Assembly: GCA_018398765.1 (NCBI GenBank)
Contig: JAHBMJ010005723.1
Location: 1 to 64,000 of the forward strand
Length of the DNA: 64,000 bases
Origin: Chromera velia
Taxonomy: Eukaryota; Sar; Chromeraceae
Direction of reading: 5' to 3'
In this document: in pieces, positions 60 through 52,389 of the stretch
Position numbering within the stretch: the stretch's first letter is position 1
How the letters are laid out: every line of letters starts with the position of its first letter
Position numbers and translations under genes: made by a program
The notes under the pieces: generated by a model
Told to the model about the DNA's origin: nothing
Database searches by the model: none
Seen by the model: only the letters and a program-made list of their open reading frames with translations

Positions 60-105
<46 letters not shown>

Positions 106-13529: not shown

Positions 13530-13561
<32 letters not shown>

Positions 13562-19239: not shown

Positions 19240-19422
19240 ACTAGAACAGCAATTTCTGCATCATATCTTTCACTTACTTTCACTTTGTTCTCGACCCGCT
19301 CAGTGCAATCACACATACCGCTTTTAATTAGACAGTCTGCATGATGTCATCTTCACCGCTGTGAATTTGAACCCTCACTGCAGCTCTTTACACAATCTTA
19401 TCGTGTCTGTGCAGGCATCTCC

Positions 19423-22034: not shown

Positions 22035-22082
<48 letters not shown>

Positions 22083-22446: not shown

Positions 22447-22490
<44 letters not shown>

Positions 22491-25157: not shown

Positions 25158-25198
<41 letters not shown>

Positions 25199-26037
25199 GT
25201 CAGTGTGGCCCTGCGAGCGGGTGCCCCTGCAGCGACTGCCTCATGCTGATCGGCCCGAAGGCTGCTGAAATTCTGGCGGGGCGCCGTGCGAGGGCAACTC
25301 GGAAGCGCTCGACGAGGGTGTGGGAGGTGGGGGCTGCCCTGTGCTCTGGTGGCGTACCCAGGGCGCGCACGCCTTCTCCCAACAGACAGCGGCAGGTCGA
25401 AAAAATGTTTGACAGCCTGCCGAACTACTATCAGGGGGGAGGGGACACTCCCGCCGCCAGAGCGGGAGCTGGGCCCGCTCCGTCTTTCCCCACACCCAAA
25501 GCAGTCTCGGCCCCAAAGCAAACGCCAGACCTATCGTGGCGATGGAATGCAGAACCCCCTTCTCCTCCTCCCCCCCCCAGTGTTTATCACCACCAGGGAG
25601 GAGCTGAGACGCCGAAAGGTGCTGCCATTGGCAAGCAGCCCTCCCCCCACCTTCCACCCCCACCTGCAAAGACGAATGCCGGTAAGTCTGACCCCTCCCG
25701 GAGTCACCGGCGGTCGGTTACTTGGGGGGGTGGTAACGGGGTGGGAGGTCCTTCGGGTGTTTCTTCTTCGGGCGGGAAGGGCGACAAGGGAAAGGGCAAT
25801 GTGGATGAGTATGAGTCCCTGTTGGCGAGTGTCGTTCTGGAGGGTGGGAGCAGAAAGCGGAAAAAGAAATTTGTGACGTCGGAGGAGGCACAGAGACTTG
25901 AGAACTCGCGGAAGAAGAAGGGGATCTCGGAACAGCTGCACTGGGTCATGCTGGAGATGCTGGGCGTCAGCCCGACCGAGTATGAGCAAATGTGCTCAGT
26001 CGGCAGGCGAATGGAAAAGCTTTCTGGAAAGGCTTAA
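23699..26037 (+). CDS. Protein with three copies of a Cys-rich (probably zinc-binding) motif, 5' partial
   Basis: Four exons fit in phase: 23699-23800, 23952-24064, 24368-24844, 25199-26037 (TAA), about 510 residues. Three units share L-F-Y-C-G-R-x5-C-x-C-x2-C-x3-C-G-P-x2-G-C-P-C-x2-C, with 8 invariant Cys each. Unit 1 spans exons 1-2, unit 2 lies in exon 3, and unit 3 spans exons 3-4. In units 1 and 3 the motif is cut by an intron. Eight cysteines per unit suits two zinc ions, but metal binding is inferred. Between and after the units the chain is proline- and glycine-rich. The C-terminus has a basic patch (GGSRKRKKKF), a candidate nuclear signal, and a helical end (ISEQLHWVMLEMLGVSPTEY). 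I do not recognise the family. The true start is not visible. Confidence 0.75.
25155..25196. repeat. (TG)n microsatellite beside an acceptor
   Basis: TG run ending in the GTGCAG acceptor of the last exon of the cysteine-motif gene. Confidence 0.9.
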
Positions 26038-28139: not shown

Positions 28140-28310
28140 CTAGGGCTGTGGCGGCGGGCGAACGGGGGGAGCGGGGGCCTTCAGGGCGGCTGCAATCTGC
28201 TCCAACTGCCCCATCACCTCCCCGTACCGCTCCTCCACATCCCCCGCGCCCTCCTCTTCCTCTCCCTCCGCAGTACCACCCGCTTTTTCGGCTGCCGTCT
28301 CGCCGCGCAG
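28140..28310 (-). CDS. Small acidic coiled-coil-like exon, gene unresolved
   Basis: Open frame after an acceptor-like GATGCAG, ending at a stop at 28140. It encodes a glutamate-rich part (GTAEGEEEEGAGDVEERYG), a helical part (EVMGQLEQIAAALK) and a proline-rich end. It has coding character but no ATG that is clearly the start. It could be the last exon of a small gene, or an alternative 3' exon of the large receptor gene upstream. Confidence 0.3.
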   Translation of the reverse strand: MRGETAAEKAGGTAEGEEEEGAGDVEERYGEVMGQLEQIAAALKAPAPPVRPPPQP

Positions 28311-28920: not shown

Positions 28921-29607
28921 TCACGAAAAGAGATCCCCGACCTCCTGATCGTCCGCATTCTGGTTTTCCCGTCGGAATTGTTCCCTTTCCCATGCTGTCT
29001 CCTGCCTGCTCATGCCCTGTGCATTCATTTCGCTCCTCTCCAACACCCCTCCACCTTCTGACTCAGCCACTCTGCTCTCCTCTGCTGCCCACGCATTTCC
29101 AGGCTGCTGATTAGTTCCTGAAGCCAGACGGCGCCCCTCCTCCATCTCTGTCTCAAAATCCGGTTGTGCACTTCTCTGTCTATCCGGCGAGGCTGGCCGC
29201 ACTTCCACGAGCGTTGACGGTTGCCCTCTCCCCCTTCCCCGTCTCCAGGGCCAGCGTCTCCCTCCACGGCCTCCTGTGCGGACAGAGGAAGCCGAAGACG
29301 CCTTGTCTTGACGACACCTGGTGCAGCAGAGAAACTGTTGACACCGTTCTCCGCACTCCTTCTCTCGCGCGGCTCTTTTCACCTTTCTTTGCCGGAACAT
29401 TTCGGCTTCTTCTGGAGACCCCGGCATGACACCGGTCAGTCTCCAGATACGCAGTCCCGCTCGTCTCTTCGAACAGCAGCACCAGGAGTGACGCTCCGAC
29501 TGCTTGTCAAATCCCGGACAGCAGCACACGCGACGCAGGCACCAGTGCCGTAAGTAAGCCCCCCGTATAAGTGCCCAAATTGAAAAGTCAAAGCGCCATT
29601 TGCGTGT
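28921..29607 (-). other. Cytosolic C-terminal tail of the receptor (last exon)
   Basis: Acceptor CCTTCCAG at 29608 joins in phase 0 to SFPK of the previous exon. The tail opens with [20 protein letters not shown] and then clustered cysteines ([20 protein letters not shown]) among arginines, which could be palmitoylated. It ends QEVGDLFS. There is no room for further membrane segments. Confidence 0.7.
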
Positions 29608-29672
29608 CTGGAAGGCAGATTGACGGACAGAGACAAAAGCAACTGGGGATCATTTGCAGCCATACGGTGGAG

Positions 29673-29716
<44 letters not shown>

Positions 29717-32700
29717 TGTGTGTCGATCTGCCTCGGATTCTCTCTATCCTTTCCAACATGTGAAGACTCCTTTCTCTGTCTGCAGGCTTCCACTTCCCTC
29801 TCAGTTCTGTGTGCTTTCACGAGACCACGGACTTGAGAATACGTACAGACATGACCGAGAAAAAACACAGAAAGGCTCAATGAAGACGCATCACCAATAC
29901 TTGAGGAGGAGAAAAACAGCTTATCAAGACAACAAAAACTTGTGAGAAATTTTCCCATGCACGCACAAAAGGGGTCGGCTGAGTGAATTCATCCCATGGG
30001 CGTGCGCACCTTCGGGAATGAGTAGGCCACGATGCGCATGACAACGAAGAGTAGAGGCTCCCAGATGACCAGCTGGAATCCTAGGGACAGAAGCGCAGTC
30101 GCCCAAAGAAGACGAGGTACACCGGCAGAAGCTGGATCAGGTCTCCCGTCGGATGCGTAGGGGTAGCCACTCCGTCGGATCTGCGTTTATTTTCATACAG
30201 TATGTATAAACGCATGTATGAAAATAAACGGATGCGTTGGGGTAGCCACTCGTCGGATCTGCATCCATGCACTCTTTCGTTCGTTTGGGCCCACCATTCG
30301 ATTGAATGAAGAGTTTCGGCATTCTGGATGCGGATCGCGCGCCTCGCACGAGCCTTTCGTTGACAATTTGGGCTCGCCAGAGAATAAGGAAACGGTCGAA
30401 AAGTGGTCCAGAAAAATGGAATCCGTTAAAGAGAAAGAGCATCGAAAATACTTTCTTTCTTTCTTCCTTCCTTCCTTCCTTCCCATCGTGGATTGAGAAA
30501 GCGAAAGAATCGAAAGGGGGCCACTTTTCAAGGACGGACGGACCCACCTACCGGTGTTCTCTGGTCCTTCTCTACCAGGAGACCATAGCGTTCGATCGAA
30601 TACCTGCATGCAGCCAGTCTCCATGTCCATGAGCAATTTGAAAGACACTCATACACACACATACACAAACATGCACAAGCACACGAACTCAACACAAAAG
30701 AGGAAAGCACAAGCAGCAGCAACAGCATAGAGGATGCAGCAGGGTGAGGAGAGGGCAGATGAATGAAAAGCGACGTAGCAAGCAAATTCGGTAGGAGATG
30801 AAAGACTTGCATGGAGAAGTGACGAAAGGGAGAAGGAAGACAAGAAGGTAGAGCCACAGAAAAGGGAGTACAAATTGACATGGTGGCATTTATTCTTGTG
30901 AGTCGGACTGACACCTTTCAACCATTCGAGAACTTTTCGATTCCTGTTTGACCTTCGAACAAATTGGTGTATGGGGTGCACATTTCCTTCTTCACTTCCA
31001 CCTAGACGCACTGACTCACTGACTGCCTGACTCACTGACTGCCCGACTGAAGGTATCGCCAACCACTGCACTGACTGACTGTATGTCTGAGTACGTAGCG
31101 TCTGATGGCCAAACGAACGCGATCTTCATCCAGGGGTTGAACACGGAGGTGGCAAAGAAGGAGAACCCGAAGACTCCAAGGAAGATCGCCCCTGTTAGAA
31201 CCCAAAAGAACCCGAGAGCAAGTTCCCGAGCCCTCACATGGCTCTTTGCGGAAAGAGGAACGAGGAACAGACGAATGTACTCGTCCTCCTTTTCCTCAGG
31301 AGTCAAGTGAAGTGCCCGGGACATTTCGTCAAAAGGAAGGGGCAGCCAGAAACCAAAAAATACCAAAATTTTGGAAACAAAAGTTGCAGCGGCAGCTGCC
31401 CACAGGATCAGAATGATGTCCCTCCCAGACCACTCCCCTTCTTCCATCGGGCACTGAAATCGATATGTGTCACTCCGACACGGGTCACTTTGTGCGACTT
31501 CAATGCGGGAGGACATGACCGCGTCGTGTTTATTAAATTCGTTTTCTGAGTCATACGGAAAGTAGAGGAGAGCTGCCACGCCCATATGTAGCCAGACGAG
31601 CCACCAAAAGAAAGCTGTCTTGTTCATTCGTGTCCAGGGGTAAGCGACGGAGTCGTTGAAGAGACAAGCGACTGAGTGGAATTCCTTCAACAACCATCGG
31701 AACAATGAAGGATCCCACCAACGAGGAGGGCACACAAACAGACAGCAGAGCGTGTCCTCATGTCGCTGTTTTTCCTCCCTCTCTTCCTTTATCTCTTTCA
31801 CTGCTGCCAAAATTTCTTTTTGTGTCAGCATTTGAGCGTCCCCCACTGAACCTCTTCTTCGTACACCCCAACCTTGCAAGACTTCTTGAAGCGCTAGAGA
31901 CTCCGCCCCTCCGTGCGAAGCCAGCCACGCCTCTTCGTCGACCTCCTCCGGTACCTCGTCTCCCTCATCTCCAGGAACAAGCCCCCCCGTATGCCCATGC
32001 GCAGGCAGGGGCTCCTGCTGAGTCACTCCAGGGGTCCATATGCCCTCGAGTTCCTCAGGGGGGACGTCGACCACAGAGGCGTGCCTGCTTCGGTTGAACT
32101 GCAAATCCTCTGGTGGCGCGTCTGGCCCGGTTCTGTTGGAGCCGTGTGCAGCAGAACTTGACGTGTGTCCCCACTCATCCCCAGCAGTAGCAGCAGCCGC
32201 CCTGCTGCCGTGGTCGACTACACCCTCTTCCCTTCTCTCGGGGGGCTGCTTCAGAAGTATGTGGTCAGTGGTCGCACCAGGAGATCGGTTCTCTTCTTTG
32301 GCTTCCATTGGACTGCTCCTGCTCTTGTTCTCTGCGCCTGTAGCGATTGCTTGCGGGTTGAGTGTGAAAGTTGAGCCTGGACTCTGTCTTTGTGCATCAA
32401 GGACCTCGGGACCTTCCAAGCGGGTGCTGGGTTTTTCTCGAGTGGACCGCGGAGGCGTATGTTCTTTTTTGATCGCTTGGGCTTCTTTTTTGGCATCAGC
32501 AGACTGAGCCCTGAGGGAGTCTACCAATAAAAAAGCAGGGCCTGTCAGGTCTTCTGTAGTCTCTGTGACAGAACCTGGAGCAAACGTAGGTTGTTCTTCT
32601 ATTAATCTAGCAGTGTCTTCTCGTTCAGAAGATGAACTGACAGCCTTTTTGGAACTTCTTGCCTGCAGAGGCGGTAATCGGAGCTTGTAGGGTGCCTTGC

Positions 32701-35700
32701 GTACTTGGGTTGCCCTAGTAAGCAAAGATGACGATGGTGTTCGATGGTGCGATGGGGTGTCCCCCTGGCTGTCCTCATTGTCTTTCGACTCCACACAAGG
32801 TGAAGTGACGGGACAAGTGTTGGAAGGGACGGGAGGGAGACAGCCCTCAGCAAACACTCCGTCCTCTTCTTCATACGCCGGCTGATAGGCAGTGCTGAAG
32901 ACGGCAGTGTCTCCGTAGGGTCCTTGTGGCTCAGGCCACTCATTTTGAGGAGGCGCAGGGGGCATCCCAAACCCTCCTCCGGCCGCATTGAAACTGCCGT
33001 CAAGAGGAAGGCCCCCGTCTACGGCTTGTCTTTCAGATTGTGCAAGCTCCCCAGCAGGAGGGGCCTCGAGGTCGTCTGCGTCTTCCTCTGGAAGTCCGGG
33101 GAGGGCAAACTCGTCGGGGAACGCGGGTATGTCGTCCCGACCCGCATACCCATACCCCCCCTCGGGTGCCGGTGCGCGCTCAGGAGGGGCTGCGGGACGT
33201 AGAGCAGGGGCCCCATCCTGCAGAAATACATGCAGCCGGGAAGTGTTCATTCCTGCATGTGCACGCAGCGCACCATTGTTGTTCTTGAGGTGGACAAAGA
33301 ATTGCATGTTCGAAGAGTCATTTGAAGGACGGTTTGAGGCCTATTCAGTCGATGTCTGTCTGATTGTCTGCCTGCCTGTGTGCCTCTCTGACTGTGATCA
33401 ATTTGACCACCCTGACTGACCGTGTGGCCGTACAACTTCCCGTCTGCTCTCCACTTCTCGTCTGAGTCGAGTTTGTCCAACTCCTTCAGAGCCCGCATGG
33501 CCACGCCAATCTCCCTCTCGTCTCTCTCCAGAAGTTCAAGGAACGCGCGCTTCCGCCGCAAGCGCTCGGTTTCCCAGGCTCCCATTAGAGAGAACACGCA
33601 GAAGAGAATCAGAACTGAAAGCAGGCAGGCAGGCAGGCAGGCAGGCAACATAAATTTTCACACACAGCACATCATCGCCTGGAGGAGCATGAATGATGTG
33701 CTGACTTGTGCATGCACATCACATCACTGGACAGCCCACACCCTACACTTGTGCATGCACATCACATCATTGGACAGCTTACACCCTCCTTACCACACTG
33801 AGGAGCACTCATGGGCCCGAGGAAGTCTGAGCGAGAATGAGCTGCACAAAATACTGCTTGTTTTTGCTTCATGCGCCCGTCTGCATGGTGTATTGCTACC
33901 TACCCGCGCAGATGTACAAGCCAATGGCGTTGTAGGCATCCAGTCTGAGACCCCACCAGACGAGCTCGCGTCTTCGTGATGGGACAACAGGGGCGTCAGT
34001 CGAGACCGCCGCCTTGCTTACCCCGATTGCGACACCCATCGGAGTACCCACACACCTGCAGACGGAATCAAAAAAAGTTATTTTGCAGAAACCATACGGC
34101 GACAAATCTAGTGAATTGATTCGGAGTTACAGCGAACCCATCACTTAACCCAGATAATACCCAGCCGAACGAACACAAAACCAGCAAAGGCTGCGGCACT
34201 TATATGTGGCTCACTGTCTGCATGCAGACATGCTGACGCACCTGCAAGAGACGAAGTAAGCAGACTCTGCCGACTCCGCGTTGCCCTCCTCCGGGATGTA
34301 CGTGTCTGCCTGGAGGGTCTGGTAGATTCCGCACTGGGAGGCGTCCCCCTGGTCGAAGCGTCGGCGGAAGGGCGAAAAGCGAAGACAGGTAAAGGACGAC
34401 GTCACAGCCCACGCGGTGTAGGGACATGAGCTGTTAACGTTGTTCTTCGCAGTCGCGTCAAGCCCGGCCTCTGCAGCGACAATGAATACAGGGATCACAA
34501 AAGCAAGTCAATGCTTTCTTTTTCTGGGTTTACCTGGCTTTGTGTGTCTCCACAAGTCTGTATCTAGATTCACTCGGCATTCTCTTTACTGACCTGCAGC
34601 AGCAGTGGTAGAATTTGAGAAGCAAGTTCGGAGTCGGAGTCTCCATATTGAAATCGCTTGCTCGCTTCTCCCATCGTAGTTTTGGGTCGGTGAGTGGAGA
34701 CCGGAGAGGAGGGCGAGACGCTGTGCGTTTGACAGAGTGTCCGGGTAAACGGCCATTCCCGCCACGGCAGACGCGAACCCGTACGCTTGGGAAGCCCACT
34801 CATACCTGCATACACGCACGTATAAAATCAAGTACTGGCTTCATCTTTTTTTAATTTCTCTCTATCATGCTCACGTCAGGTGTACGGGGAGGGGGGAGTA
34901 ATGAAAACTGTGACCAGTCAAGTCGCGTTGGCCTGAAAGCTAACTGAATATGTGCCCGATTCAAATGTTCGAACTTGCTGCGGCATTGATTCCTTCTTTT
35001 TTCCTGTGACTGTATTTTCGTGCGCTCGGATAGGTCGGGAGACTTTCATCGCTGCATGGAAGTCTGTCTGCTTTCTCGAAGTTTGTTGAGAAGTTTCATA
35101 TCTATTCGGACTGGTCCCTCTTAGCCGAAGTCGACTAATTTACTTACGCAGAGACGAAGAAATTTTTTGATTACGCGTTGCCGAATACTTCCTGGATTTT
35201 GGTTATAAACTTGACTTCTACTCAATCAAAACTGCTCTTCTATCGCTCGAAAACCGACCTGTATGCTTCAGGAGATGCCTCCCACATGCTGAATCCCGCT
35301 CCAGAGTCTGCATAGGTCGACGAGGTTGTCCAGATACCGGAGTTGTGACTCTCCCACAAAACTGAACTTCCGGATCCTCTGATTGTTGTCGCAAACTCGG
35401 TCTCGTTTGTTCCGATGGAAGACATCGGGAGGGTCACGTTGAAGCTCAGAGTTGGAGCGAAACCTGCACTGCCCACCATTCCATCTCCCATCAAGGTCGA
35501 GGGCGCTGTGTACCCTGTGGTGGCTCCCTGCATGAAGGGCTCTCCTCTGGACAGGAACATCTTTGCCAGGAGGTCGGAAGTCCTCACGAGAACAGATTTG
35601 GTCACCTGGCTGGAGCTGGTGTCCGTGGCTGCCGAGGGATCATATTGGAGAGCTGATGATGTCAGACGCCGTCTCGTATCAAATGTGATAGAGCCGCTGT

Positions 35701-38700
35701 CTTGTGACTGTGTCACTGCAGCGTCTTGAGCGTCGGTGCCGAGAAATAGGAGGGTGCTGGTGACTGTGGCCGTGGACGTTGCGGCCGTCGAAGATGTAGA
35801 TCTGGCAGTGGTCAGAGCAGTGGCCAGGTCGAGTCCGAGCACCGTCCGGAAATCTGATGGGACTCCGCAAGGGCAGTCGACAGGGCTGACTGTGGCTCCA
35901 TCGAGAACGCAGACCTCAATTGCTGTGTCCCACGAAATTGCGGAAGCTTGATCGTCCGAGTCGAGTGTGAAGGTTGGACGCATGTTCAGACAGGAGAGTA
36001 CAGCTTTCGAGCTGGTCTCAGAGCACACGACCGTGCCACCCGGGAGGCTCCTTGTAGTTGAGCTGTCGCATGCAACAGACGCGAATGCAGTGTTGCTGTT
36101 CCCAGGTGTTTTGCTCGAGTCGTTGCTTTTCACGAAAGTGTCGTAGAGTCCTGCAGAAAGGCAGAAGGATAAACGAGGTCAACTTTCTCATGTGATCATC
36201 TCAACAGGTTGGTCCGAGCACACATGATGAGATGCAAAGTGAGCGTTTCATATTTACACGTCAAAGAAGTGTCTGGAGCCAGAGGAATCTAAAAGGAGCA
36301 TCCCATATCGAGCAGGGGACAGGCAGGACCGCTGACATGCAGACTTTTCTGACCTTCGCCATCCCTGATTGGCAGAGAGCTTGTATCGTTGAACGCGCAT
36401 GCTTCTGTTTGGTTTCGAATGTCCCAGAAAAGCCCAGTGAGGTTCGTCGAGAACCCGCCATTACCAGACGCGCTGATGAGTGTAGTCCCGAGAATGTCCG
36501 CAATCATGAGCCTTGAGGCTGTCGTCAGACGTCCACAGTCTGCAGAGAGGAAGCCGTTCGTGAGCAAGTTCATAAAGATTGTTCAAACCCGATCCTCACA
36601 CTCTCATACGCGAAAGAAGTTTTGTTGAGATGGATCTCACAGCGAGAGCCATGCATTTTTTTCTTTTAATTTCAAAAGTCCCCAATTCGTGCATGCCTCA
36701 AGGAAACAATGACCAGCAAACTTGCTGCGTTGGTATCATGCCGCTCAAGTGGAGGTTATTCGTGTTTGTTGTTGAACACGAATGCAAAGAGCCTTGCGAG
36801 AAAAGAAAACCATTCAAAGAATCTTGTTTTTTCCAATTCTGTGCTCTCCCGGTGAAGAAACTAACCTGCTGCGAGAGTCCGCAGAGCACTCAGAGCTTGA
36901 GCCATATCGCCTTGTTCAGACGGGTCGAGGAGTTTTGCATCTGCCTGGAGCTGCGTGAGGAGGTCGGAAGTGAGGGCCTGCTGGCTCTCCACCTCCGAGA
37001 GGCTTCGGTCGCAGGCAACTCCAGTGCGGTTTTGTGAACAGGAACATCGATTCCACAGGGTGGTCCATACCTCCACAGACGCATTCATGCGGACAAGAGC
37101 GTTCCCTCCTCTGTCTGTCTCGATGACGGTCATCTCTGCTGTGTTGACGTCCGTGATTGGAATGAGACGCTCAACCTCCTGAATTTCGAAAGTCGACACG
37201 GGACTTCCACAGGCGCCCCATTGAGCACAATCTGTGGTGCAATTGGAGACGGCACTCGTATTCTCTGCTGGCCAGAGTGCGATCTCAGCAATATCCTGGA
37301 GGGCCTGGATGCGCTCACGTGGGCCTGCTGCAGCGAATTGGGAAGACAAAGTTGTGGTGAGGACGGAACGCTGTCTTGCCAGGTCGTACGGGTCATTGTC
37401 AGGGTCCGACACCCCCGAATCAGATGAGCCTCCGTATGCCCACAGCAGTCTCGCTCCACGGAGAAGAGCATGATTGGAACCGGTCCCCCAAGTATCAGAA
37501 GGGGAGGGAACCTGCAAGGTGGTGTGATGCAAGAAACTCATCCATTTTCAGCCTTTCCCGGTGTACATATCCACCCATTCATGTAAAGGCTTGGCAGATT
37601 CATGGACCCGGATTCATAATTCGGAGCGCGACAGACACACTTACAGGCCTACACGCCCCTTTATTTATGAGGCATGATTTGTTTTACAGTGAAGGATCTT
37701 CACGGTGGCTTTAGGACTCTAAGTGCACAAGGATGCATGGATACGCATGAATACGGGATCTTCATTTGTTCATGTTTTTTATTTTGCTGACGGACCTGTA
37801 GCGTTGCGTTGGAAGCAGTTGTTGCCTCCTGCCCGAGACTGTCTCGCACCCTGCCGACGATGACAATATCGGACATGTCTTGGCTGGCCCTGTTGCGTGG
37901 CAGAAAGAAAACTGAGGCAGAGGCTGAACCACCCCAGGGTAAAAGGACCGCTCTAATTGAGGTCGTTGAGTTATCTGCACTCCTGAACGCGTAGTAATCG
38001 AACGCATACTCCAGGGGCCCATACAGATCCGTCCAGTACTGCTGTGTCAGGTCTGCCCTCAACATCCCCCCGTATATGTTGGCGGCTGACACCAAGGACA
38101 CCGATATCTGGCCGCCAGACGGAGCTGCAGCGATGACAACCTTCAGGGAGGTGCTGAAGGCATTTGTGCGCGTGACGAAAGCGGTGGTAGGTACCACGTT
38201 CTGCTCCGCGAATGCAACTGTGTACTGGAATGTGTAAAGGCCTCCCGCAGTCAGTTTATTAGCAGGTATTGCATGGACAGCGCTGCCGAAGGACGGGTAG
38301 ACGGAGGCCACGAGGGTCTGTGTGGAGGTCAGGTTGACGGTCTCGTTGGAGAAGACAAACGCCTGACCGGCAGTGTCGACTATCGACCACTCAGAGTAAA
38401 AGGCGTATACCTGATTGCCTACTCCTGCAAAGCTGACAGGGGTAAATCCTGAAGTGGAGGTGGGAACATGTGAGGAAGTCGACTGGGCGTCAGCGGTGCG
38501 TGTGGGAAAGAGGTCGACAGTAGAGTCCGTTCGGTTGAACCAGACAGCAAGAATGGCGGGTGCGTCGGTAGCTAGAATGAATGCACCTTGGTAGGTTCCG
38601 TAGGATACCCCAGCCCTCCTTGCGGCCGCTTTCGCATACAGGTTTCCCCCATTTTGCGCCATGCTAGTGAGGTCACTCAGTGCGACGTCCCTCCTCGAGT

Positions 38701-41700: not shown

Positions 41701-44700
41701 TCGAGTCGCACCCGTCTCCGCTCTGAGGAAGTGCCGTGACGACCCCGTTGACCAACGTGTCGACTCCTCCGTTGTCGCACTCCTCCCCCGAAGTCCTGTT
41801 GCCGTCTCCACAATGCCCCGAGCAAACAGTAGCCGACGGGTTGTTGGCGCATGTATACAGAGTCTCAAGGGCGCATGAGGCAGAGCACCCGTCTCCTCCC
41901 TCGGCGTTTCCGTCGTCACAATCCTCGTCGGATGCAACAAGACTGTCAGAGCATCTGCTGAAGCAAAAGTCCCCTATTGAGGAAGCGGTCGACTGAAGAC
42001 AGTAGAAGCCGTACTCGACCTGCAGGAAACGGGTTGTCCATTTGGACGATCGAGTAAATCAGATATGCGTATGTAGAGACAGGAGACAACAAGGCATGAT
42101 CTAACTATGGAAGGGATTGTCTGGGTGAAGTAGGATACCGGTTTTGGGTTGCACCACTGTGTGGGTTTTGTTGATCCTGCCACATTGCAGGTTGATTCTG
42201 TAGGAGCGTCAGATTGCTGTAGAACCCGAACCAGAGGGTTGGGAGAAGACAAGGAGTATATCGACGACTGAAATAATCGAGCTAACTCATGCATCTTTGA
42301 AGATGCGCATGCGTCGGTACAACTCAAGAAGGAATGGACTACAAAGATAAAAAGCCCAAAAGAATAATTCAATAATCTCTTTTCACATGGAGTGACTCTG
42401 CCAGAGACTGATTGCATATGCACAGGCACAGGATGCCCGCGGGACCCCTGAAAGTCGCAATCGACTGACTTGGCAATTCGAATCACATCCGTCTCCGTTG
42501 TTGGTATTTCCTGCGAACATGACAGACAACGGCTCACTGGAAATCAGCATCGCATCAGAACAAAAACATCAAACAGTGCTCTTGGCAGAGGAAGAGGGAC
42601 TTTTCGCTTTGCCTTATTTCTTTCGGACTGGGGGCAATCGACAAAGAAAGAAATTGAGGGAAAACCCCCGAATTAACGAAAAAGGAGCAAGGAGGACACA
42701 CGGACCATCGTCGCACGTTTCATGAGACTGCCGAGTCCCATCTCCGCAGGGGGTTTTGCAGCCCGAGCTGGAGGTAGAGCACTGATGGGCGTATGACCCG
42801 TCACTCTGCAAGAAGAGGTCATCATCAGGCATACATCGAAAAATGGGACGGGGACAGAGAGCGTGAATGTTGTGTGCGATAGGATGCCAACGGGCAGGTG
42901 GCGCACATGCATTCGGTTGAGATGAGAGAAAAGAATTCGAAACTTGAAGAAGAAATTCAGTTGAGAGAGAAAAAGACTGGCATGAATTCTGAAGGCAAAG
43001 CAACCGATATTCCTGAATGAATCTTGTGACTCCCGACTACTCTGGAAGAAACCAGAACAGAAGAACAAGCCTGCCTGATTTTGAAACAGAGTGACACACA
43101 GATTTGCAATTCAGAAAAGAAAAGAAAAGAAAAGAAGCTTCAAAACAATTCAATCAAACATGCTGCATGGCCAAGACCAGATCGAAAGCAAAATTCCCAT
43201 ACAAACCTGAGAGCGCCAGCAACAAGTGTAGCTGGACTCAACCGTGCAAGCGGACGAGCACCCATCTCCATTGGCCGTGTTTCCGTCGTCACATTCCTCC
43301 CCGATGGTTTTGAATCCATCTCCACAGACGGGAGAGCAGGAGGTGAGGGAAGACGAGGAAAGAAGGTCGAACGCAGAGCAAGCGAAATAGGTCTCCACTG
43401 TGCATTGCTTCGAGCACCCGTCTCCGTTGACCTGGTTCCCATCATCGCTGAACGAAAGAAACAAAGAAACAGAAAGAGAAAGAAAAGGAAAGGAAAAGCC
43501 AAAACGCCATGTTCAAGCGCAGAAGATGGATTCAACATAGTACGCTAGACAGAATTGTGTCTGTCGAGGTGATGTCAAATCAAAAGAAAGAAATGGAATG
43601 AAAAAAAGATCGAGTGGAAGCAGAGAGGATTGAAAGGAAATTCTGAATGAATTCAGGCCAAAAAAGGAAATCTGTTGGTCTTTGCTCTTCGAAGAAACTT
43701 CCTGCTCTCTCTGCCTTGATTCGTTTCTCTTCCTTTCTTCACTCCCTCCCAGTACCGTTCTTTTGCTCCTTCTCTCCTTCCTTGTTTCCTTTCTGCGCTC
43801 CTTTTGACCCCTCTCCTCTCTCTTTCATCCAGCCCTTTGCACCATCTGCTTGGCTCAGACGGGCTTTCACAGCTTGCACCGAGTTGCTGAAGGATCTCTA
43901 AACTTTTTTCGTTCATTCACAGAAGCCAGGACGGGCTATGCCGAAGGAGGTCAAAGTTTTTATAACTGTAGCATGACTTTTCATTCTTCCCTTCTTTTCC
44001 TCCCTTTAGTGTCTGCTTCACTTGTCTCTTCACGATTTCAACCCCATACATTCATTTTCCTTAAAGTGCAGCGATGATCTTCAAAGCTTTCGATGGCTGA
44101 CCAACCATTGCTCTGAACCAGCCAGGGTTCCATCTCCGCACACCGGCGCGCATGCGGTCCCTGCTGTCCCGCACACAAAGCCTGCCTCGATTGTGCAGTT
44201 GGGGTAAGAGCAGCCGTCTTCGCTTGCATTGTTTCCATCGTCGCATTCCTCCGAGCCTCGCTGGAGACCGTCCCCGCAGGTGGGCACGCAGATGGACTGC
44301 GACCCTGTCGAGGACGTGGTGTCCGGATAGCAGGTATACCCCGTCTCTATCCTGCATCATTGCATGGCCATCACATAAAGACAGCACATCAATGCTTATC
44401 GGCGACAGACCCAAAGGATATCGAAAGAATATCAAGCAAGGATGCCACGAAGGTGCTTGACTATTCGCTGCAATTTCACCGATTTTCGGTGTGTCAGATG
44501 GAGCGGTACCGCGGTCTATGGGCGTGACTGTCCATGCGACAAATGAAAAGATGGCACTCTGTCTGACGCGTGGAAGACTGTCCCGTCCAACTTTCACAGA
44601 AGGCCATGCCACTTACGTGCAAGTGAACGAGCACCCGTCTCCCCCCACAGGCAAATTGGTGGTCGAGCTCACTCCGTTGTCGCACTCCTCTTTGTTGGGA

Positions 44701-47700
44701 ATCGTCCTCCCGTCCCCGCACTGAGAGCTGCAGGACTGGCTGTTGGTCTTCCAGACCTCCACTGTTTGGTTGCGTTGCCAGTCGCATCTGCACACACACA
44801 CGCATACCCATACACGCAGATGCATCCGCGCCGACGTAGAGAAAGAAATCTCGTCTTCTCAGACCGCAAGATCGGTGCAAGTTGCCAGTTGTGTCTGTAC
44901 GTATGCAAACGTTGAACTGATTACCAGATCAGCAGGGATTTCTCAGATCAGTCATCTATGCAGATGAAGTCCCAACACCAGTCAACAGCTTTTACTAAGA
45001 AGAAAGAACCTTTCCTGCTTGCTTTGATTGCTCAACTGCGAAACGCAAAGACCGGCTGGAAAGCCAAACTCAAACTCACAAGAATCCTGTTTCTACAGCG
45101 CAAGAGGACGAGCAGCCATCTCCATCAGAAGTATTTCCGTCGTCGCACCCCTCCACTCCGTTTACTTTGTACCCGTCTCCACAGGTAGCAGAGCAAGAGT
45201 TCACTCCCGTCAAGCTGCTCGACGAGCAACTGTACCCAGTCTCAACGTTGCAGCGGGGGTCACAGCCGTCACCCCCGTTCGTGTTCGAGTCGTCACACCC
45301 CTCCCACCCAGAGATGACGGTTCCGTCTCCGCATGAGGGGGTCATCACGCTTCCCGAGATCCCCACGATCGCGTTCGACGATTGCCAGTCGGCCCACCCC
45401 GTCTCGATCTGATCGAATTCAGCAGAGAACGAGAGAGAACAAAAATACAATTCATTCTGAAGACTCGGAGCAGAGAAAAGGAGTCTGTATTCGATATTGC
45501 TTCGAATTACTGGCGTTCTTAGCCCCCCCCCAAATGCCTCAAAGTACCGCATTGCACATAGAAATCAATTTTTGGCCCTTTCTGCAGACTTATCTTTGGA
45601 CTGAAATGCAGGGGGAGAAAGAATGCCCACAATGCAATCCAAAGAGATAAAACAAAAGCCCTCATTAAAGCTATCTACAGAACGGAAGCTAGAAAGGGTC
45701 GAGAGACCAAGCACGTCTCTAAAACAACGAGATCACCCATGTGCAATGCGTGATCCCAACTTTCTTTTTCGTATGCGTGTTTGACGCTTGCACGAACGCA
45801 TACACTGTCAATGCACGCACATTCATTCACTCCAACGTGAAAAAAAAAGCTAGGCTCACTTGACAATTGAAGCATCCGTCCCCCGAGACATCGTTGGCAT
45901 CGTCACAGGCCTCGCTTGCCCCCACGACGCTGATCGTGCCACACCCCTGTGTACACGTTTCTGGGTTGTTTGCGGGATAGGTCATACCGTTTCGCTTACA
46001 TGTCCACCTGCAAGGTTGTACATGGAGACTCACTTAGGAAGATCAGTATCCAGGATCACTTCAGCCTTTCTGCATCCCTTTGCACGAAATATAAGACCTC
46101 AAAGGAAGTGTTAATTCAGGGAGCAGATGCCGACTCGGAGGTGTAACATATACAGTGATGAATTTGCATTATTTCATGTACGATTCTCTCAAAGTAGAGC
46201 TCCATTGATTGAAAGCATTATTCACAATGTTGCAACAGAAAGTTTGATTCACAATTTTCACAAATGCAAAAACACCGAAAAACAGTTATCCAGCATGCAC
46301 CCACAGATAATAAAGCTATGTATGTCCAACGGCAATGCAAATGAATGCCCTCAAAACCACTGAAGAAAAAAAACGAAGAACAGCAGATCACGCACCCGTC
46401 TGCGACAAGGCACGTGTCGAGGCACCCGTCTGCGTCGTTCCCGTTGGCCCCGTCGTCGCATTCTTCGGCCCCCAGGCGAGACCCGTCGCCGCAAGTCGCT
46501 GTACAGGTGGAGGGTCCGAAGGCATCGGCAGCAGAGTTGTAGGGCGCTGTGCAGGTGAACCCGGTCTCAATCGTGCACGTTGCGCTGCACCCATCTCCTG
46601 CAATCTGGTTGCCTGCATGCGCACTCATGCGGAGGTGGAAAGTCAACAGAAGCACATCCAACAACCCAGTATGATGAAAGGACGAGCCAACGCCAGACCA
46701 CACCGCTTTTCAGTCACGCTACGCACCTCATAACTAATGTCAGTAATCATGATTGTTTGTTTTCTCTCTTGTTCTTTTAACTTCAAAAAAAGCAAAAGGA
46801 GCTGAGCTGTCAAACTAAGGACCTGTTAATGAGACTTGTCAAAGGACAAGTCAAACAATTGAATTGAATTGTGGTGGTACAATGCTCTATCAATAAACTG
46901 TATCCGCTGACTGCCCAGCGATACACCGAGCGTGTCATCAGCTTACGTGGCAAGATCGTCTTCCTGTCTTGATGAGCCTCGCACGTGGGTGTACGTATGA
47001 ATATTTGTTCCTCACTGTCCTTAATTCCTGACTCACCCACCGTCATCACAGGTCTCCGTAGCGTTGGAGATCAGAGAGTCCCCGCACAGGACGTAGCAAT
47101 TATCGGGGGTCAGCCCGTTAACGTCTGTGACGTCGCATGCGTAGAATTGCTCGATCGTTCCTGTGCTTGTGCAACCATCGCCGTTGACTGTGTTGCCATC
47201 GTCGCACGCCTCCGCAGAGGTCCTGTGTCCGGTGGAAACAATCAAACCAAGAATGCCAAGGTTGAGAAAGACTTGATAGGGAGGGTGAAGGTCTGTCTGC
47301 ATTGGCTCTCGTCCCTGCTTTAAACAAGACTTAGTCGATTCATGCACAACGGACAGAAAACGAGATTTCAAAGGTGCGAGGGTGCCCAAATTGCAATGGT
47401 TTGTTCCCTGTTGTGCAGACATTCCGGTAAATGAGGATGGAGGTTCGCTTCCTAGCGGCTGCACCCGTTCATTTTTAACTCTTGTGCAAAAGTGGACTTC
47501 AAGCGGTGTAAGTGTATTTGATGAAGCATGAACTTGTCTGGAAATTAGTCTGCGATCATGACTCTTGCTTGCACAAGTTGACACGCTGACCTTCTTCCGT
47601 CTCCGTAAACGGGTGAACAGACGGAAGGGTTTGCAGTGAAGATGATTGTTGTCTCGTCGAGAACCGAGGTCCCGCTCTGTTGTGAGTACGTCCAGGGAGA

Positions 47701-50700
47701 CGCCGTGTTCCCTGCAGTGGGCTGGGTGCAGGTGAAGCCCGTCTCCGTGCGGCAGTCGATTGAACAGCCGTCTCCGCTGATGCTGTTCCCGTCATCACAC
47801 CCTCCAGACGCGGCCTCGTTATCCTGCAGAGTCAAAGAGTGAGTAAGCAAAGAATTAAGCAGACCGCCCACTGAGATTAGAGTCGAACGATGGAGAGAAG
47901 CCGTTTCTGTGCCCGTATGTCTAGCCCTCTGATTTCAAGTGTGTCTTAGATGCTTGCCTCTTTGATCGCAAATTGACGACAAAGTTCCGTCCTTTCTGTA
48001 GGGTGAGGAGGAAGTGAGATGTCCTTGAGAGGAGAGGTCAGCACAACAGCCAACCAACTACAATTTCAGGCTCACAAGAAGACGTGCTCAATTCAAAGAA
48101 GCTTCTCTGTTCGTCCACCGTCGAGGTCATGCTTATTCAATGCTGCTCTGAAGCAGGAGCTAAAACAAAAGCAGGATAGACTCACTTGCACAAAACCATC
48201 ACCGCACAGAGTCGAGGTCTTCACCCGAAGAACCGAGGACTCCGCACCGACCCCTGCTGAGTTTTTCGCTGCCACTGTGATGCCGTAATGGCGTGAGTAG
48301 ACAAGATTGAGGGCCAGTCCCATTGTTGCCGTCTCCCCCGTTACCGTGGTGGACTGGAACGCTGACCGGCCTGAGAGGGGTCCGTCTGGGTCCGAGTACG
48401 TGTAGATGACGAAGGAGTCAATCGGAGCCCCCCCTGCCTGTGAGAGGTCCATGTCCCAAGAGACTAGGACTGCAGTGGTGCGTGAGCTCACGAGAGTAAC
48501 GTTCTCAGGAGCGGCAGTTGGGACCGCCGGGGTGAATGTGAAGTCAACTGCGGTGCTCGCTTCTTCATTCTCGGATATGTCTTGGTAGTACATCTGCAAT
48601 CAGCAGAGAAAAACAACGAGTGCGAGAAGTTCACGGACTTTTCTCTGTATTCACCTAAAGACAAGCGGTTTGACAGGAGCATGCAGGAAAATATCTGCGT
48701 GTCGCAATGTAAGTCGTCAGTCTCTCCACATGAGCTTTACTGAAATTGACACAGGCCTTTACACATCTGTATCCACATTTCACAAGTCCATGCACTGACC
48801 GTGATTCGATAAACAGAGTTGGCCACAAGGTTCACGTTTCCAGTCGTTGAGGCGCTCATGTTGGCTGCGCGCAGTGCTGGGTGGGGCTGCTGCGTATTGG
48901 AGGGGTCCTTGAAGATGTCGGTGGTGAACAATGTGATGGTGTGGGGGGAGCCGCTCGTGGTCTCATACGAAGTGAGCGGCTGGAAGAAGTAGGGCGATCT
49001 GGGGTCGGTTGTTGACCCTGCAGCCAAAATGTTCGGACACAATCAATTGTACCGTAGGACGGTGAAATACAATTTTGGATGTCTCGGTGACCGAGACGGA
49101 GGGAGGGATCATCAACACAAACTACGGAACCCGAGAGGTTTTGTCACTACTTCCTTTCTTCATGATTGTCGATCAGGACAGCTTGTGGATTGATTTCGAG
49201 ACCCACTTCTGTATGTCTACACGGACTGGACGATGTTCTCACACGCAAAGAAAAGTTTAGGATCTGAAAACGAACTCATGCAACGGAAACAGGGTGTTCC
49301 GTTTCAGCACGAATACAGGCACGGGGAAGGGCTTTCAAGAATTTCGGTGGGACAAACAATTCGCCAGAGGAGGGAGAGACAAGGTGAGGCAGCTAGAGTG
49401 AGAAACGGACAAACAAATGCGACGAATTCAAATCATGGAATTGTGAGAAACGGACAAACAAATGCGACGAATTCAAATCATGGAATTTGAGGAGCAAAAC
49501 GCAGAAAGGAGTTCGGACGCACACATACATTCTTGTGCGTGCATCAAGGCAGGGAAGAAACATTCACTGACTGACTGACCTGACTGCCAAGTTAAGGTAA
49601 AATAAAGAGACCCCGAGAGAGGGGTCTCAGGAACCGTGTAGGTCAGGGCCACTGTACTGTCTACTGTCTGGAGACTGGTAGGGGAGCTGATGACGATCTG
49701 CTGGGTCGAGGTATCTTCTGTGTAGGTCACGCTGGTCGCCGTTGCAGTGGCATCTCCATTCCTGTGCAAGTCGTTGGTTGCCAGGAGGAATGTATAGATG
49801 GCCCCGCTTGGCAGAGTTCTGGCAGTTGCAGATGTGAGGTCTCCGTTAGTGTCGTTCATTGCCGCAATCACAGAGGCCGAATTTTCAAGAGCAGAAGTGA
49901 AATTCTGAGCCTCAAAAGTAATGGCAGACGTCCCGGCCAAAATGGCGGTGCCGTTGAATGTAATGACGTAAGGGGAATTGGCGTCGGCTGTTCCGCCTGT
50001 TCGCGTGATGGTCAGTGTGGTCTCGCTGGACTCCTCCGCGAGCGTGTAGGAGACTTGAAATACTTGTGCTATCGTCCCGCTGGCGGTTGGGCTTGACAAA
50101 GTGGGGGCTGACGTTGACGAGTCTGTGTTGACCGTGATAGACTCGACACGCGCACTGGCTGGGGCGTTACCGTAAATGTCCCTGTAGTAGACTTCAATGT
50201 AGTAAGTCCACTGAAAGTTTGGGGAGCTGTATGGCGTGAGGAGCGGGTATGATCCGAATGGAGCCGTGTCCGTAACGTTCCATGCTTTGAGTGTGGTGAA
50301 GTCTGCGTTAGTGTCAAAGTCCTGTCTGAGGTCGTCTCTCTTGAATCTGACTGTATTGGACCCTGTGGTGAACGCGCCGGATTCGAGCAGGACCCACATG
50401 GGCGCCTTCGTGTCGTCTCCTATGGTCATGGTTCCGAAGGAAAAGGAAATGACGTCGTCTGTCAGATTGGCGGGAAGTTCGGGAAGGGTGAAAGTCACCT
50501 CAACCAGCTGAGTGACTGTGCCTGAAGCTGCTGGGCTAGTGATTGTCTGCAGGCGAGCAATTGATTTGAGTTGGATGGACATAGAGGTTAGGCATTCACT
50601 TGGAGACTTAGGTCATCAACAAGATACGTCTTTTTTTGTCATTCAGGGCTGGAATTCAAGCACAACCAGAGGCACACAAAGAAGTCGTTCGTACGATTGC

Positions 50701-50708
50701 AGAAAGAA

Positions 50709-50744
<36 letters not shown>

Positions 50745-50775
50745 CGAAAGAACGAAAGAACGAACGAACGAACGA

Positions 50776-50806
<31 letters not shown>

Positions 50807-52389
50807 GAAGAAAGAAAGAAAGGAAGAAAAGAAAGAAAGAAAGAAAGAAAGAAAAGAAAGAAAGAAAGAAAGAAAGAACGAAAGAAAGGAAAGAAGGAAG
50901 GAAGAAAGGAAGAAAGAAAGGAAGGAAAAAAGAAAGAAAGAAAGAAAGAAAGAAAGAAAAGAAAGAAAGAAAGAAAGAAAGAAAAGAAAGAAAGAAAGAA
51001 AGAAAGAAAGAACGAAAGAAAGGAAGGAAGGAAGGAAGGAAGGAAGGAAGGAGGAAAAAAGCTTTGCGGGTCAGCATGAGAAAGTGGATAGGAAAGCACA
51101 AAGCCCGCAGCAAAAGAATCAGACCACGAACGATTAATTTGGACTCACAGGAGCTGTCGTCGTTGTGTCTGTGAATAGAGTCTGGGGACTGTACGTGGTT
51201 GCTCCCCAAACTTCGGGAAGGCCGTTGCTAGAAACCAGACCGACAGAGAAGTCGCCACCCGCAGAAACGGTAGTGTAACTTTCACTGCTGTTCACTCCTG
51301 AGACCTGTGAGCCTGTATCATCGCCCCAACACACCCCCGTACCGTTCGCCAACGCGCCACAGCAGTGGGAGTCGTGGCAGTTGAGGGTATTCCATGTGTC
51401 TGGAGAGACTGTGGGGGGAGAGAGAACAGCCGAAGTTGTGGAAGTGCCCCAGCAGGTCACCACCACCTGGTCCTCCACGACGCAGCAGAAAGTCGGTCGA
51501 CAGCTGAGATTCTTCCAATTCGTTGCGATGCGCCCAGGAGGTTGAGTGCGCACATCGTTGGGGCCCCAGCAGACCAGTTGCTGCAACGGGAAACGGATCA
51601 GAAAAACGCAAAAAGACATTGACATTGCTTTTGCGGGAGTGAGACAAGCGGGGGGGAGTGCGGGGAGAGAGAGAGCTTAGAAGGGGGGGGGGAGACTTCG
51701 AGGGAAAAGGCAAAACATTTGAGGGAATCCGTGAATTGTCTTTCAGAAGTGGCGCACATTTGCCCTCATGCTCGGAGTGAAATTGAAAAATGTGCAGCCG
51801 AAAGACACATACAAAGTGCCATGGTCATTCGCACCTAAGGAATGGGCAAAGGAGACACACCCCAGCAATATGCAGCAGCCACACCCACCATTCCTTCTGT
51901 GATACCACAACAGTGCGCATTTCCACAGGACACTTCGTAGAACACAGTTGTCGACGGGGGAGAGGATTGGAGCTGAGCGTCCTGTCCCCAGCACACGGCA
52001 AGTCCAGTGTCGGTCAGGCCACACGTATTATAGGAGCCTATGGTCAGATTTGAAAGTTGCGTTCCTTTTCCCAGTGCAGACACATCAGGCACTGTGGTCT
52101 GGCCCTCTGTGCTTCGACCCCAGCACGTTGTCGTCTGATTTGTCGTGATGGCACATGCGTGGTTATCGCCCACAAAAAGACTCTCAAATAGGGCACCCGT
52201 CGCAATCCCGCTTACAACTGTCGGAGAATTGCTTGCCGACCCCCAACCGGCAATCGTTCTATAAGAAGTAAGGCCCAGACAGAAGTCTCTACCACAAGAA
52301 ATGTCAATGTAACTTATGTTGGAAGCAGCTCCTAAGAAGGAGATTACCCCCAAACATGCGAAAAGAGATTTACTGTAACGCCTCTTCAT
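28921..52389 (-). CDS. Giant REJ/polycystin-1-like receptor: RCC1, Ig/FN3, 20 DUF4215 repeats, REJ, GPS-like, five TM
   Basis: Twenty-eight exons join in phase: 52389-51859, 51580-51149, 50546-49580, 49017-48800, 48593-48186, 47823-47591, 47222-47041, 46612-46396, 46007-45860, 45408-45080, 44787-44617, 44351-44106, 43447-43207, 42805-42706, 42510-42470, 42019-41600, 41358-41161, 40846-37796, 37511-36866, 36539-36354, 36150-35259, 34805-34594, 34470-34242, 34055-33904, 33614-33421, 33217-31072, 30131-30010, 29607-28921; about 4,532 residues. The start is an ATG heading a signal peptide ([14 protein letters not shown]). The ectodomain ends near a C-R-C GPS-like site before TM1. Polycystin-1 family members act as adhesion/mechanosensory receptors; whether this one signals or traffics with a channel partner is inference. 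The end of exon 26 (several GT choices) is the least certain join. No stop or frameshift interrupts it. Confidence 0.85.
30010..33614 (-). other. Membrane region: TM1, cytosolic loop, TM2-TM5
   Basis: Exons 24/25 create TM1 ([20 protein letters not shown]). A mostly disordered, acidic and proline-rich loop of about 550 residues follows, where PLAT would lie, with a coiled-coil-like [17 protein letters not shown]. Then TM2 ([19 protein letters not shown]), TM3 ([20 protein letters not shown]), TM4 ([20 protein letters not shown]) and TM5 ([20 protein letters not shown]). The W-E-P after TM5 parallels the polycystin-1 block there. Confidence 0.75.
30151..30262. repeat. Duplicated 33-bp unit flanking an inverted repeat
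   Basis: Two near-identical copies (30151-30184, 30230-30262) flank a 15-bp inverted pair (CGTTTATTTTCATAC and its complement). It lies in the receptor intron just upstream (minus strand) of the acceptor at 30132. Confidence 0.8.
33705..33787. repeat. Tandem 43-bp duplication in a receptor intron
   Basis: Two copies starting CTTGTGCATGCACATCACAT with period 43, differing at a few bases. Confidence 0.9.
33904..37511 (-). other. GAIN/GPS-like juxtamembrane region and start of TM1
   Basis: Exons 19-24. A long Ser/Thr/Asn-rich region is followed by ESAYFVSC joined in phase to [12 protein letters not shown]. The C-R-C pair and the hydrophobic stretch after it sit where the GPS 'C-x-C-x-H/T' lies. 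The classical GPS HL-T/S cleavage tripeptide is not evident, so self-cleavage is doubtful. Exon 24 ends with [10 protein letters not shown], which begins TM1. Confidence 0.55.
37796..39999 (-). other. REJ region of the receptor
   Basis: Exon 18 continues without introns from the cysteine array into [20 protein letters not shown] and FTPSWTVD, matching the REJ opening ('G-x-x-x-V-x-x-C-x-x-x-x-L-x-x ... W-x-V'). Several hundred residues of Ser/Thr-rich beta sequence with many NxS/T sites follow. REJ regions sit before the GAIN/GPS part in polycystin-1 and sea-urchin REJ proteins. Confidence 0.75.
40000..47823 (-). other. Array of 20 DUF4215/Myxococcus-type cysteine repeats
   Basis: Exons 6-17 and the start of exon 18. 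Units follow C-G-D-G-x(4-8)-E-x-C-D-D-G-N-x4-G-D-G-C-S-x2-C-x2-E-x-G-(F/Y)-x-C, e.g. [19 protein letters not shown] count 20 E-x-C-D cores. Three are variant: [16 protein letters not shown] is shortened and two EECDNG units have long inserts. Family knowledge: these modules are extracellular, disulfide-bonded and common in protist and myxobacterial surface proteins. Confidence 0.9.
48186..48593 (-). other. Fibronectin type III domain of the receptor
   Basis: Exon 5 encodes [19 protein letters not shown], then [10 protein letters not shown] and [14 protein letters not shown], a standard FN3 fold signature (Pro start, Trp of strand B, Tyr of strand F, A-x-N-x-x-G). It ends in TLCGDGFVQ, the beginning of the first DUF4215 unit. 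Confidence 0.8.
48800..50546 (-). other. Ig-like beta-sandwich repeats of the receptor
   Basis: Exons 3-4. Repeats start SPxASGT(V/I), for example [21 protein letters not shown] and [19 protein letters not shown], with Thr/Ser-rich strands of about 110 residues. They resemble bacterial-type Ig or cadherin-like domains. The family is not named with confidence. Confidence 0.6.
49399..49488. repeat. Perfect 45-bp tandem duplication in a receptor intron
   Basis: Two copies starting TGAGAAACGGACAAACAAAT, period 45, with no difference seen, so the event is recent or an assembly duplicate. Confidence 0.9.
50697..51060. repeat. (GAAA)n polypurine tract in receptor intron 2
   Basis: About 360 bp of nearly uninterrupted A/G with GAAA units and GAAG/GGAA and CGAA variants. 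On the coding (minus) strand it is a polypyrimidine tract. Confidence 0.95.
51149..52389 (-). other. Signal peptide and RCC1-like propeller of the receptor
   Basis: Exons 1-2. After the signal peptide there are eight WG-type units, such as [45 protein letters not shown] and PEVWG. The 'H-x-C ... C-W-G' rhythm is that of RCC1/RCC1_2 repeats. Here the family's usual loops carry extra cysteines, as expected for an extracellular copy. Confidence 0.8.

What the first reader, a model, noticed from the sequence alone, without database searches (positions are those of the whole stretch)
28921..52389. Receptor combining an RCC1-like propeller, 20 DUF4215 repeats, REJ and polycystin-1-type membrane segments
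Each module is seen directly in exons that join in phase through 28 exons. I know polycystin-1/REJ proteins and DUF4215 proteins as separate groups, but I do not know a described protein with this order in one chain. The size and lack of damage suggest a selected, expressed cell-surface protein.
Basis: partly seen in the sequence, partly recalled or inferred. Interest (0 to 1): 0.8.

Follow-up and report, generated by a model that had tools for sequence, protein, structure and literature searches.

The report
Giant algal receptor with mixed surface domains
A single-celled organism, probably the alga Chromera velia, appears to carry one very large intact gene for a cell-surface receptor that joins a plant-receptor-like propeller, a long cysteine-rich stalk and a stretch distantly related to animal sperm and kidney receptors; what it does is untested.

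Summary
The reading holds up in outline. One open exon holds the last five DUF4215 repeats and the REJ-like region, so the feared split there is excluded in the DNA. Strongly supported: a seven-unit RCC1-type propeller close to the ectodomain of plant receptor kinase ACR4, FN3 and 20 DUF4215. Weakly supported: REJ. Five membrane helices rest on hydropathy and one motif match. GPS, PLAT and PKD channel were not found. So it resembles a REJ/PKD1-type receptor but does not pass as a polycystin-1. It is not isolated: the same genome holds REJ receptors with EGF or sushi fronts, and relatives that carry one DUF4215 plus an intact GPS. Best reading: a channel-less recognition receptor, one of a lineage-specific repertoire. 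The gene model was partly edited by hand, and the last two exons are weak. New variant of a known kind.

The parts
28921..52389 (-). whole gene model, 30 exons, 4585 aa
   Evidence: partly edited by hand; controls
52327..52389 (-). start codon and signal-peptide-like N-terminus
   Evidence: hydropathy peak at residue 10; read by eye, no signal-peptide program was available
51149..52389 (-). exons 1-2: seven RCC1/crinkly-type repeats of about 40 aa (propeller)
   Evidence: RCC1_2 E 8.5e-17 in exon 1; seven units; C-X9/10-CWG in five of seven; PDB match to ACR4 7a0j E 4.2e-17
48800..50546 (-). exons 3-4: region without a family match (beta-sandwich-like by eye)
   Evidence: exon 3 open frame: 0 Pfam families; coding frame supported
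48186..48593 (-). exon 5: FN3 domain plus the CGDG that opens the first DUF4215 repeat
   Evidence: fn3 E 6.6e-9; sequence
40022..48206 (-). array of 20 DUF4215 / myxo_disulf repeats, exons 5-20 (ends approximate)
   Evidence: 20 stretches, E 4.3e-108; TIGR02232 E 1.7e-51 in exon 20 and 9.5e-24 in exon 11; 21 core motifs
37796..40846 (-). exon 20, open for 3051 bases: last five DUF4215 repeats and REJ-like region in one exon
37769..38152 (-). REJ match (C-terminal part of the REJ profile)
   Evidence: 28.3 bits; 24.5 bits alone; none in the long scan
33904..37511 (-). exons 21-26: juxtamembrane region where a GAIN/GPS domain would be expected; none recognised
   Evidence: no GPS match; hhalign to GPS relatives not better than shuffles
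33575..33935 (-). TM1 (approximate, split by the intron between exons 26 and 27)
   Evidence: hydropathy 2.67
31625..33574 (-). long loop between TM1 and TM2, presumed cytoplasmic, low-complexity, no PLAT (contains the intron between exons 27 and 28)
   Evidence: 0 Pfam families in the open frame of exon 28
31163..31621 (-). TM2, TM3 and TM4 in exon 28
   Evidence: hydropathy 1.67, 2.28, 2.09; TM2 motif shared with C3442
30010..30131 (-). exon 29: TM5
   Evidence: hydropathy 1.93; weak coding score +1.6; splice sites chosen by hand
28921..29607 (-). exon 30: basic, cysteine-rich tail and stop
   Evidence: sequence; coding score -0.5, the weakest exon

Best explanation
One intact gene for a very large cell-surface recognition receptor of a chromerid-like alga. 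Shown by sequence: one spliced frame with an RCC1/crinkly-type propeller, FN3 and 20 DUF4215 repeats. Supported but weaker: the REJ-like region, the signal peptide and five membrane helices. Inferred mechanism: the propeller at the far end binds a ligand (partner cell, gamete, bacterium or host matrix); the disulfide-rich repeat array is a stalk; the REJ-like and juxtamembrane parts pass the pull to the five-helix anchor with its long inner loop and basic tail. No kinase or channel domain was found, so it must signal through a partner, possibly one of the PKD-channel-like proteins encoded on other contigs. With no recognisable GPS it is probably not self-cleaved. It is one member of a set of receptors in this genome that put different binding fronts on REJ or GPS bases.
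For: Gene. Front; a propeller of this type is the presumed ligand-binding part of plant CR4 receptors (PMC4617170, passages). Array. REJ: (score 41.4 against a maximum of 26.8 in 15 shuffles, probability 20%, E 0.0011). Helices. Related receptors with other fronts in the same genome. PKD_channel matches elsewhere: 16 on 13 contigs. REJ proteins act in gamete contact in sea urchin and one in Ectocarpus shows positive selection (PMC1934368 and PMC4700764, passages).
Against: No transcript. Exons 28-30 needed hand edits. REJ is not listed in a scan of the whole region; the profile of the GPS relatives gives its REJ part only 2.8 bits. The juxtamembrane part does not resemble the GAIN/GPS part of the relatives (16.7 against shuffles up to 21.2). 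The membrane part matches neither C3495, C3608, C612 and C3614 as a profile (17.8 against shuffles up to 21.7) nor any PDB chain, and has no close copy in the genome. Both AlphaFold models are unusable.
Confidence: 0.6

Rival explanations
1. Two or more neighbouring genes read as one, split at a junction that no exon bridges, such as exon 2/3 (propeller to the next region) or exons 25-28 (outer part to TM2-TM4).
For: These joints rest on splice signals and frame only; the unedited model differs in exon 28 and at both ends.
Against: Exon 5 links FN3 to the array and exon 20 links the array to REJ; with free starts and stops the finder still gives one long gene.
Confidence: 0.1
2. A structural coat, wall or cyst glycoprotein with a membrane anchor rather than a signalling receptor.
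For: 170 cysteines and 39 N-glycosylation motifs in the first 3500 residues, long repeat array, no enzyme or channel domain.
Against: Five predicted helices and a long inner loop are more than an anchor needs; REJ-like base and relatives with intact GPS.
Confidence: 0.15
3. A receptor whose C-terminus differs from my model: exons 29-30 are wrong, or further helices, perhaps a channel, lie in exons that I missed.
For: Weak coding scores, repeated GTCAGT at the exon 28 donor.
Against: No PKD_channel match on this 150,552-base contig at E 0.1 (contig length); relative C3442 also shows no helix after its fifth in the 2.5 kb fetched (read by eye).
Confidence: 0.12
4. Artefact or pseudogene.
For: No transcript was available; automatic model imperfect.
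Against: No stop in 4585 codons, score 1356 against 117 and 38-62, conserved cysteine repeats.
Confidence: 0.03

Closest known systems
Polycystin-1 / receptor-for-egg-jelly family (PMC1934368, passages read)
   Same: Giant surface protein, modular front, REJ-like region before several membrane helices; the family as described spans 1 to 11 helices and variable fronts.
   Different: No GPS, PLAT or PKD channel found; five predicted helices; propeller and DUF4215 array are not among the modules named in the passages read.
REJ/GPS receptors in the same genome (C3608, C3495, C612, C1987, C3801, C3614, C3474, C610, C3442)
   Same: REJ-type region then helices; C3608, C3495, C612, C1987 and C3801 also have a DUF4215; C3442 shares the TM2 motif.
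   Different: EGF, sushi or WSC-like fronts, at most one DUF4215 match each on their contigs; those with DUF4215 have an intact GPS. Their gene models are automatic and unverified.
Ectocarpus male-gamete REJ protein Esi0130_0068 (PMC4700764, passages read)
   Same: REJ receptor outside animals, 6-7 predicted helices.
   Different: 1427 aa, GPS present, no propeller or DUF4215 in the passages read.
CRINKLY4/ACR4 receptor kinases of plants (PMC4617170, passages read; 7a0j)
   Same: Seven extracellular RCC1-type repeats of about 39-40 aa with C-X-CWG motifs.
   Different: No kinase; the rest of the chain is unrelated.
Myxobacterial surface proteins with RCC1 and DUF4215 (L099)
   Same: RCC1 propeller beside a DUF4215-like unit in one frame.
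   Different: One DUF4215-like unit, below the cut-off, and RCC1 after it instead of before; no REJ family listed.

Membership tests
Polycystin-1 / REJ receptor | REJ domain | tested here: inconclusive
   28.3 bits over cut-off, 24.5 bits just under it alone, none in the long scan, hhalign above 15 of 15 shuffles at probability 20%
Polycystin-1 / REJ receptor | GPS/GAIN before TM1 | tested here: not met
   15 GPS matches in the genome, none on this contig; none in the spliced region; hhalign no better than shuffles
Polycystin-1 / REJ receptor | PLAT domain after TM1 | tested here: not met
   no Pfam match in the open frame of exon 28 (E up to 1); the short exon 27 part and parts of the loop were not scanned apart
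Polycystin-1 / REJ receptor | eleven helices with PKD channel (polycystin-1 proper) | tested here: not met
   five helices by hydropathy; no PKD_channel match on the contig
Polycystin-1 / REJ receptor | membrane part homologous to PKD1 | tested here: inconclusive
   0 PDB matches, model of TM2-TM4 too poor; TM2 motif shared with REJ relative C3442 only
CRINKLY4 receptor kinase | seven crinkly repeats | tested here: met
   seven units of about 40 aa, five with C-X9/10-CWG, ACR4 match E 4.2e-17
CRINKLY4 receptor kinase | cytoplasmic kinase domain | tested here: not met
   no kinase family listed in the parts scanned; exon 30 scanned from its open frame
DUF4215 / myxo_disulf repeat | tandem cysteine-rich repeats over the curated cut-off | tested here: met
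   353.9 bits, cut-off 27; TIGR02232 171.7 bits, cut-off 20.8

The most novel reading that the evidence does not exclude
This alga has a repertoire of channel-less, about five-helix REJ receptors that swap ligand-binding fronts (EGF, sushi, WSC-like, crinkly propeller with DUF4215 stalk), comparable to the adhesion-receptor repertoire of animals but built in a photosynthetic relative of apicomplexan parasites; the member in this window has in addition lost self-cleavage and joined a plant-type receptor propeller to an animal-type REJ base.
Probability: 0.35. Interest if true: 0.65.

Novelty: new variant of a known kind. Interest (0 to 1): 0.45.

Why it matters
If the chain is made as predicted, REJ-type receptors outside animals can carry fronts known from plant receptors and repeats known from bacterial surface proteins. 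The gene and its relatives are concrete candidates for cell recognition (mating, flagellar contact, partner or host contact) in a lineage close to apicomplexan parasites, where the 2015 chromerid genome paper infers such recognition from its extracellular proteins (PMC4501334, passages; section 55).

Tried and rejected
Rejected: two genes split between array and REJ (one open exon). Rejected: chance. Rejected as unsupported: a GPS in this gene. Led nowhere: PDB sequence searches with the membrane part (0 matches each); AlphaFold of TM2-TM4 (mean pLDDT 47.5) and of the REJ region (32.8), so no fold search was made; Rfam on the window (0 matches). Paper searches in the held library: Chromera with DUF4215 (0), REJ/polycystin/GPS/alveolate (28 papers, 20 listed), DUF4215 alone (0), receptor for egg jelly with dinoflagellate (1, listing only, on Hydra and Chlorella), GAIN domain with Tetrahymena and polycystin (0), cysteine-rich repeat with Myxococcus and RCC1 (0), REJ domain with protist terms (2,929 papers hold two terms; none of the 15 listed holds 'REJ domain').

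Below-cut-off Pfam matches that I gave no weight: V-SNARE in exon 21, MISS and DIPSY in exon 23, an apicomplexan microprotein in the TM part, a prophage tail domain in a REJ piece.
Full report
Setting. The window is contig C3795, bases 1-64000, of a genome of 177.8 Mb in 4040 contigs. No tool names the organism. Size and contig number fit Chromera velia (193.66 Mb in 5953 scaffolds, PMC4501334, passages) if short scaffolds are left out; this is inference.

The gene. Open frames and a small gene finder trained on the long open frames of this locus give a chain of exons on the minus strand. The raw result has 34 exons, with a 2-base false first exon, a 3-base micro-exon and an intron that removes TM2 and TM3 from a long open stretch. 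I set the start to ATG 52389, dropped the micro-exon, kept the open stretch whole as exon 28 and chose exons 29 and 30 by reading the sequence. The result is 30 exons and 4585 residues with GT and AG at all 29 introns, ending in TGA at 28921.

More than chance? The finder scores 1356 on this strand, 117 on the other and 45, 62 and 38 in three block shuffles. With starts and stops made free it still gives one gene of 34 exons plus a 62-residue scrap; only a bonus for each start and stop breaks it into dozens of pieces. With each exon left out of training, the spliced frame is the best of three in 30 of 30 exons and positive in 29 of 30; the weak ones are exon 29 (+1.6) and exon 30 (-0.5). The model was trained on this locus and the exons were chosen with a model of the same kind, so this supports rather than proves.

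Modules. RCC1_2 in exon 1, E 8.5e-17. Seven units of about 40 residues across exons 1-2, five with C-X9/10-CWG. Best PDB matches by sequence are 7a0k ('Predicted protein', E 5.2e-19) and 7a0j, the plant receptor kinase ACR4 (E 4.2e-17), ahead of BLIP-II, UVR8, HERC2 and RCC1. Plant CR4 receptors have seven extracellular repeats of about 39 residues with a C-X10-CWG motif and are thought to bind a ligand there (PMC4617170, passages). FN3 E 6.6e-9. DUF4215: 20 stretches at a permissive limit, E 4.3e-108; the same repeat is NCBI's myxo_disulf_rpt and matches pappalysin-1 in the PDB (E about 2e-8).

REJ. In the genome search the stretch 38152-37769 has 28.3 bits (cut-off 25). A scan of the whole spliced region lists nothing, and the last 130 residues alone give 24.5 bits, E 1.3e-5. 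Against a profile of C3474, C610 and C3442, hhalign gives score 41.4, E 0.0011, probability 20%; the best of 15 shuffles is 26.8. The corresponding HMMER search finds two stretches in the same order, 10.1 and 6.4 bits. The profile of the GPS-bearing relatives gives the REJ part only 2.8 bits. I take REJ as likely but not proven.

Membrane part. Five peaks of hydropathy follow. TM2 matches C3442: 24.9 against a maximum of 17.6 in 20 shuffles, repeated with a longer string (24.9 against 18.0). It does not match the C3495/C3608/C612/C3614 profile (17.8 against shuffles up to 21.7), nor any PDB chain, nor another place in the genome (next best E 0.59). Charges around the helices put the tail inside only weakly. 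The TM1-TM2 loop shows no PLAT.

GPS. Relatives read Cys-Arg-Cys-Ser-His-Leu-Thr and match Pfam GPS. The window reads Cys-Arg-Cys-Val-Gly-Thr at a similar place before TM1, and only after I removed the micro-exon; the automatic model reads differently there. No GPS match was found and the region is not closer to the relatives than shuffles are. If the places do correspond, the histidine is gone and self-cleavage is unlikely (role of the histidine recalled).

One gene or two? Exon 20 (40846-37796) is open for 3051 bases and holds five DUF4215 repeats and the REJ-like region. Exon 5 holds FN3 and the CGDG of the first repeat. Other joints rest on splice signals and frame.

Relatives in the genome. 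REJ: 10 matches on 9 contigs at E up to 1, five over the cut-off. DUF4215: 45 matches on 9 contigs. Four contigs have both: this one, C3608, C3495 and C612 (REJ of C612 below cut-off). Automatic models of C3608, C3495, C612 and C1987 read as EGF repeats (Pfam run on a C3495 part; the C1987 model holds only one such repeat and ends at the end of the fetched stretch), one DUF4215, a long REJ-type region and an intact GPS. In C3495 three hydropathy peaks follow TM1, and one more helix is read by eye; C3608 and C612 models show fewer. C3801 belongs with them and has DUF4215 and GPS. C3614 has sushi repeats (E 4.8e-7), a GPS-type motif by eye and helices of similar layout. C3474 is a clear REJ protein (E 1.5e-21), and C3442 has a WSC match below cut-off and no helix after its fifth in the 2.5 kb fetched (by eye). 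Of two other DUF4215 arrays, fetched only in part, C1 runs into a GPS and one helix; C3172 runs into a GPS-type motif with no helix in the model. The first 841 residues of the window protein have no second copy at E 0.01. PKD_channel: 16 matches on 13 contigs, none on this one.

Outside the genome. The array query found 55 bacterial or archaeal loci, many titled as myxobacteria. Among 58 open frames with the core motif, from 48 of the 55 loci, two frames of one locus (L099) had two or more RCC1-like motifs by my pattern; that pattern misses the window's own propeller, so this is a lower bound. Pfam confirms RCC1 in both frames with a DUF4215-like unit below cut-off. A propeller beside this repeat is not new in itself.

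How it probably works. A propeller of a ligand-binding type at the tip, a disulfide-rich stalk, a REJ-like base, five helices. No enzyme or channel domain was found, so signalling needs a partner. Roles to test are gamete or flagellar contact, by analogy with sea urchin REJ proteins (PMC1934368, passages) and the Ectocarpus male-gamete REJ protein (PMC4700764, passages), or contact with bacteria or a host. Ligand, location and signalling are inferred, not shown.

What is known. The chromerid genome paper discusses extracellular proteins (section 55); its main text holds neither 'GPS' nor 'polycystin' (supplements not seen). No paper in the held library contains DUF4215. These searches cover open-licence papers only, and I had no eukaryotic protein database, so the order may exist in annotation or elsewhere in print. 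Interest 0.45: solid and unusual, but a new arrangement of known modules, with a marginal REJ and no functional test.

Noticed in passing
window 64-18661, + strand (automatic model; subtilase near its start): Subtilase-like protein, PF00082 E 3e-18 on its first 116 residues. The automatic model is unreliable further on and shows a stop inside.
   Followed up: partly
window 19087-28300, + strand (automatic model): Predicted protein with three similar cysteine-rich units ending in GCPC-x-x-C; no Pfam match at E 0.01 for the part tested.
   Followed up: partly
window about 50640-51080: Long A/G-rich (T/C-rich) microsatellite inside the second intron; it gives false open frames of Lys/Glu/Arg or Ser/Phe/Leu on both strands.
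   Followed up: no
window 31015-31085: Repeated GTCAGT at the 3' end of exon 28 offers several possible donors; similar Ser-Val-Gln-Ser repeats appear in models of relatives.
   Followed up: no
L043 (C1:162001-172000) and L042 (C3172:56001-66000): Downstream ends of two other DUF4215 arrays: GPS plus one helix in C1, GPS-type motif in C3172, so a second receptor type uses this repeat.
   Followed up: partly
L025, L023, L028 (C3495, C3608, C612): A long conserved stretch of several hundred residues between TM1 and the later helices; the 259-residue C3608 part tested has no Pfam match at E 1.
   Followed up: partly
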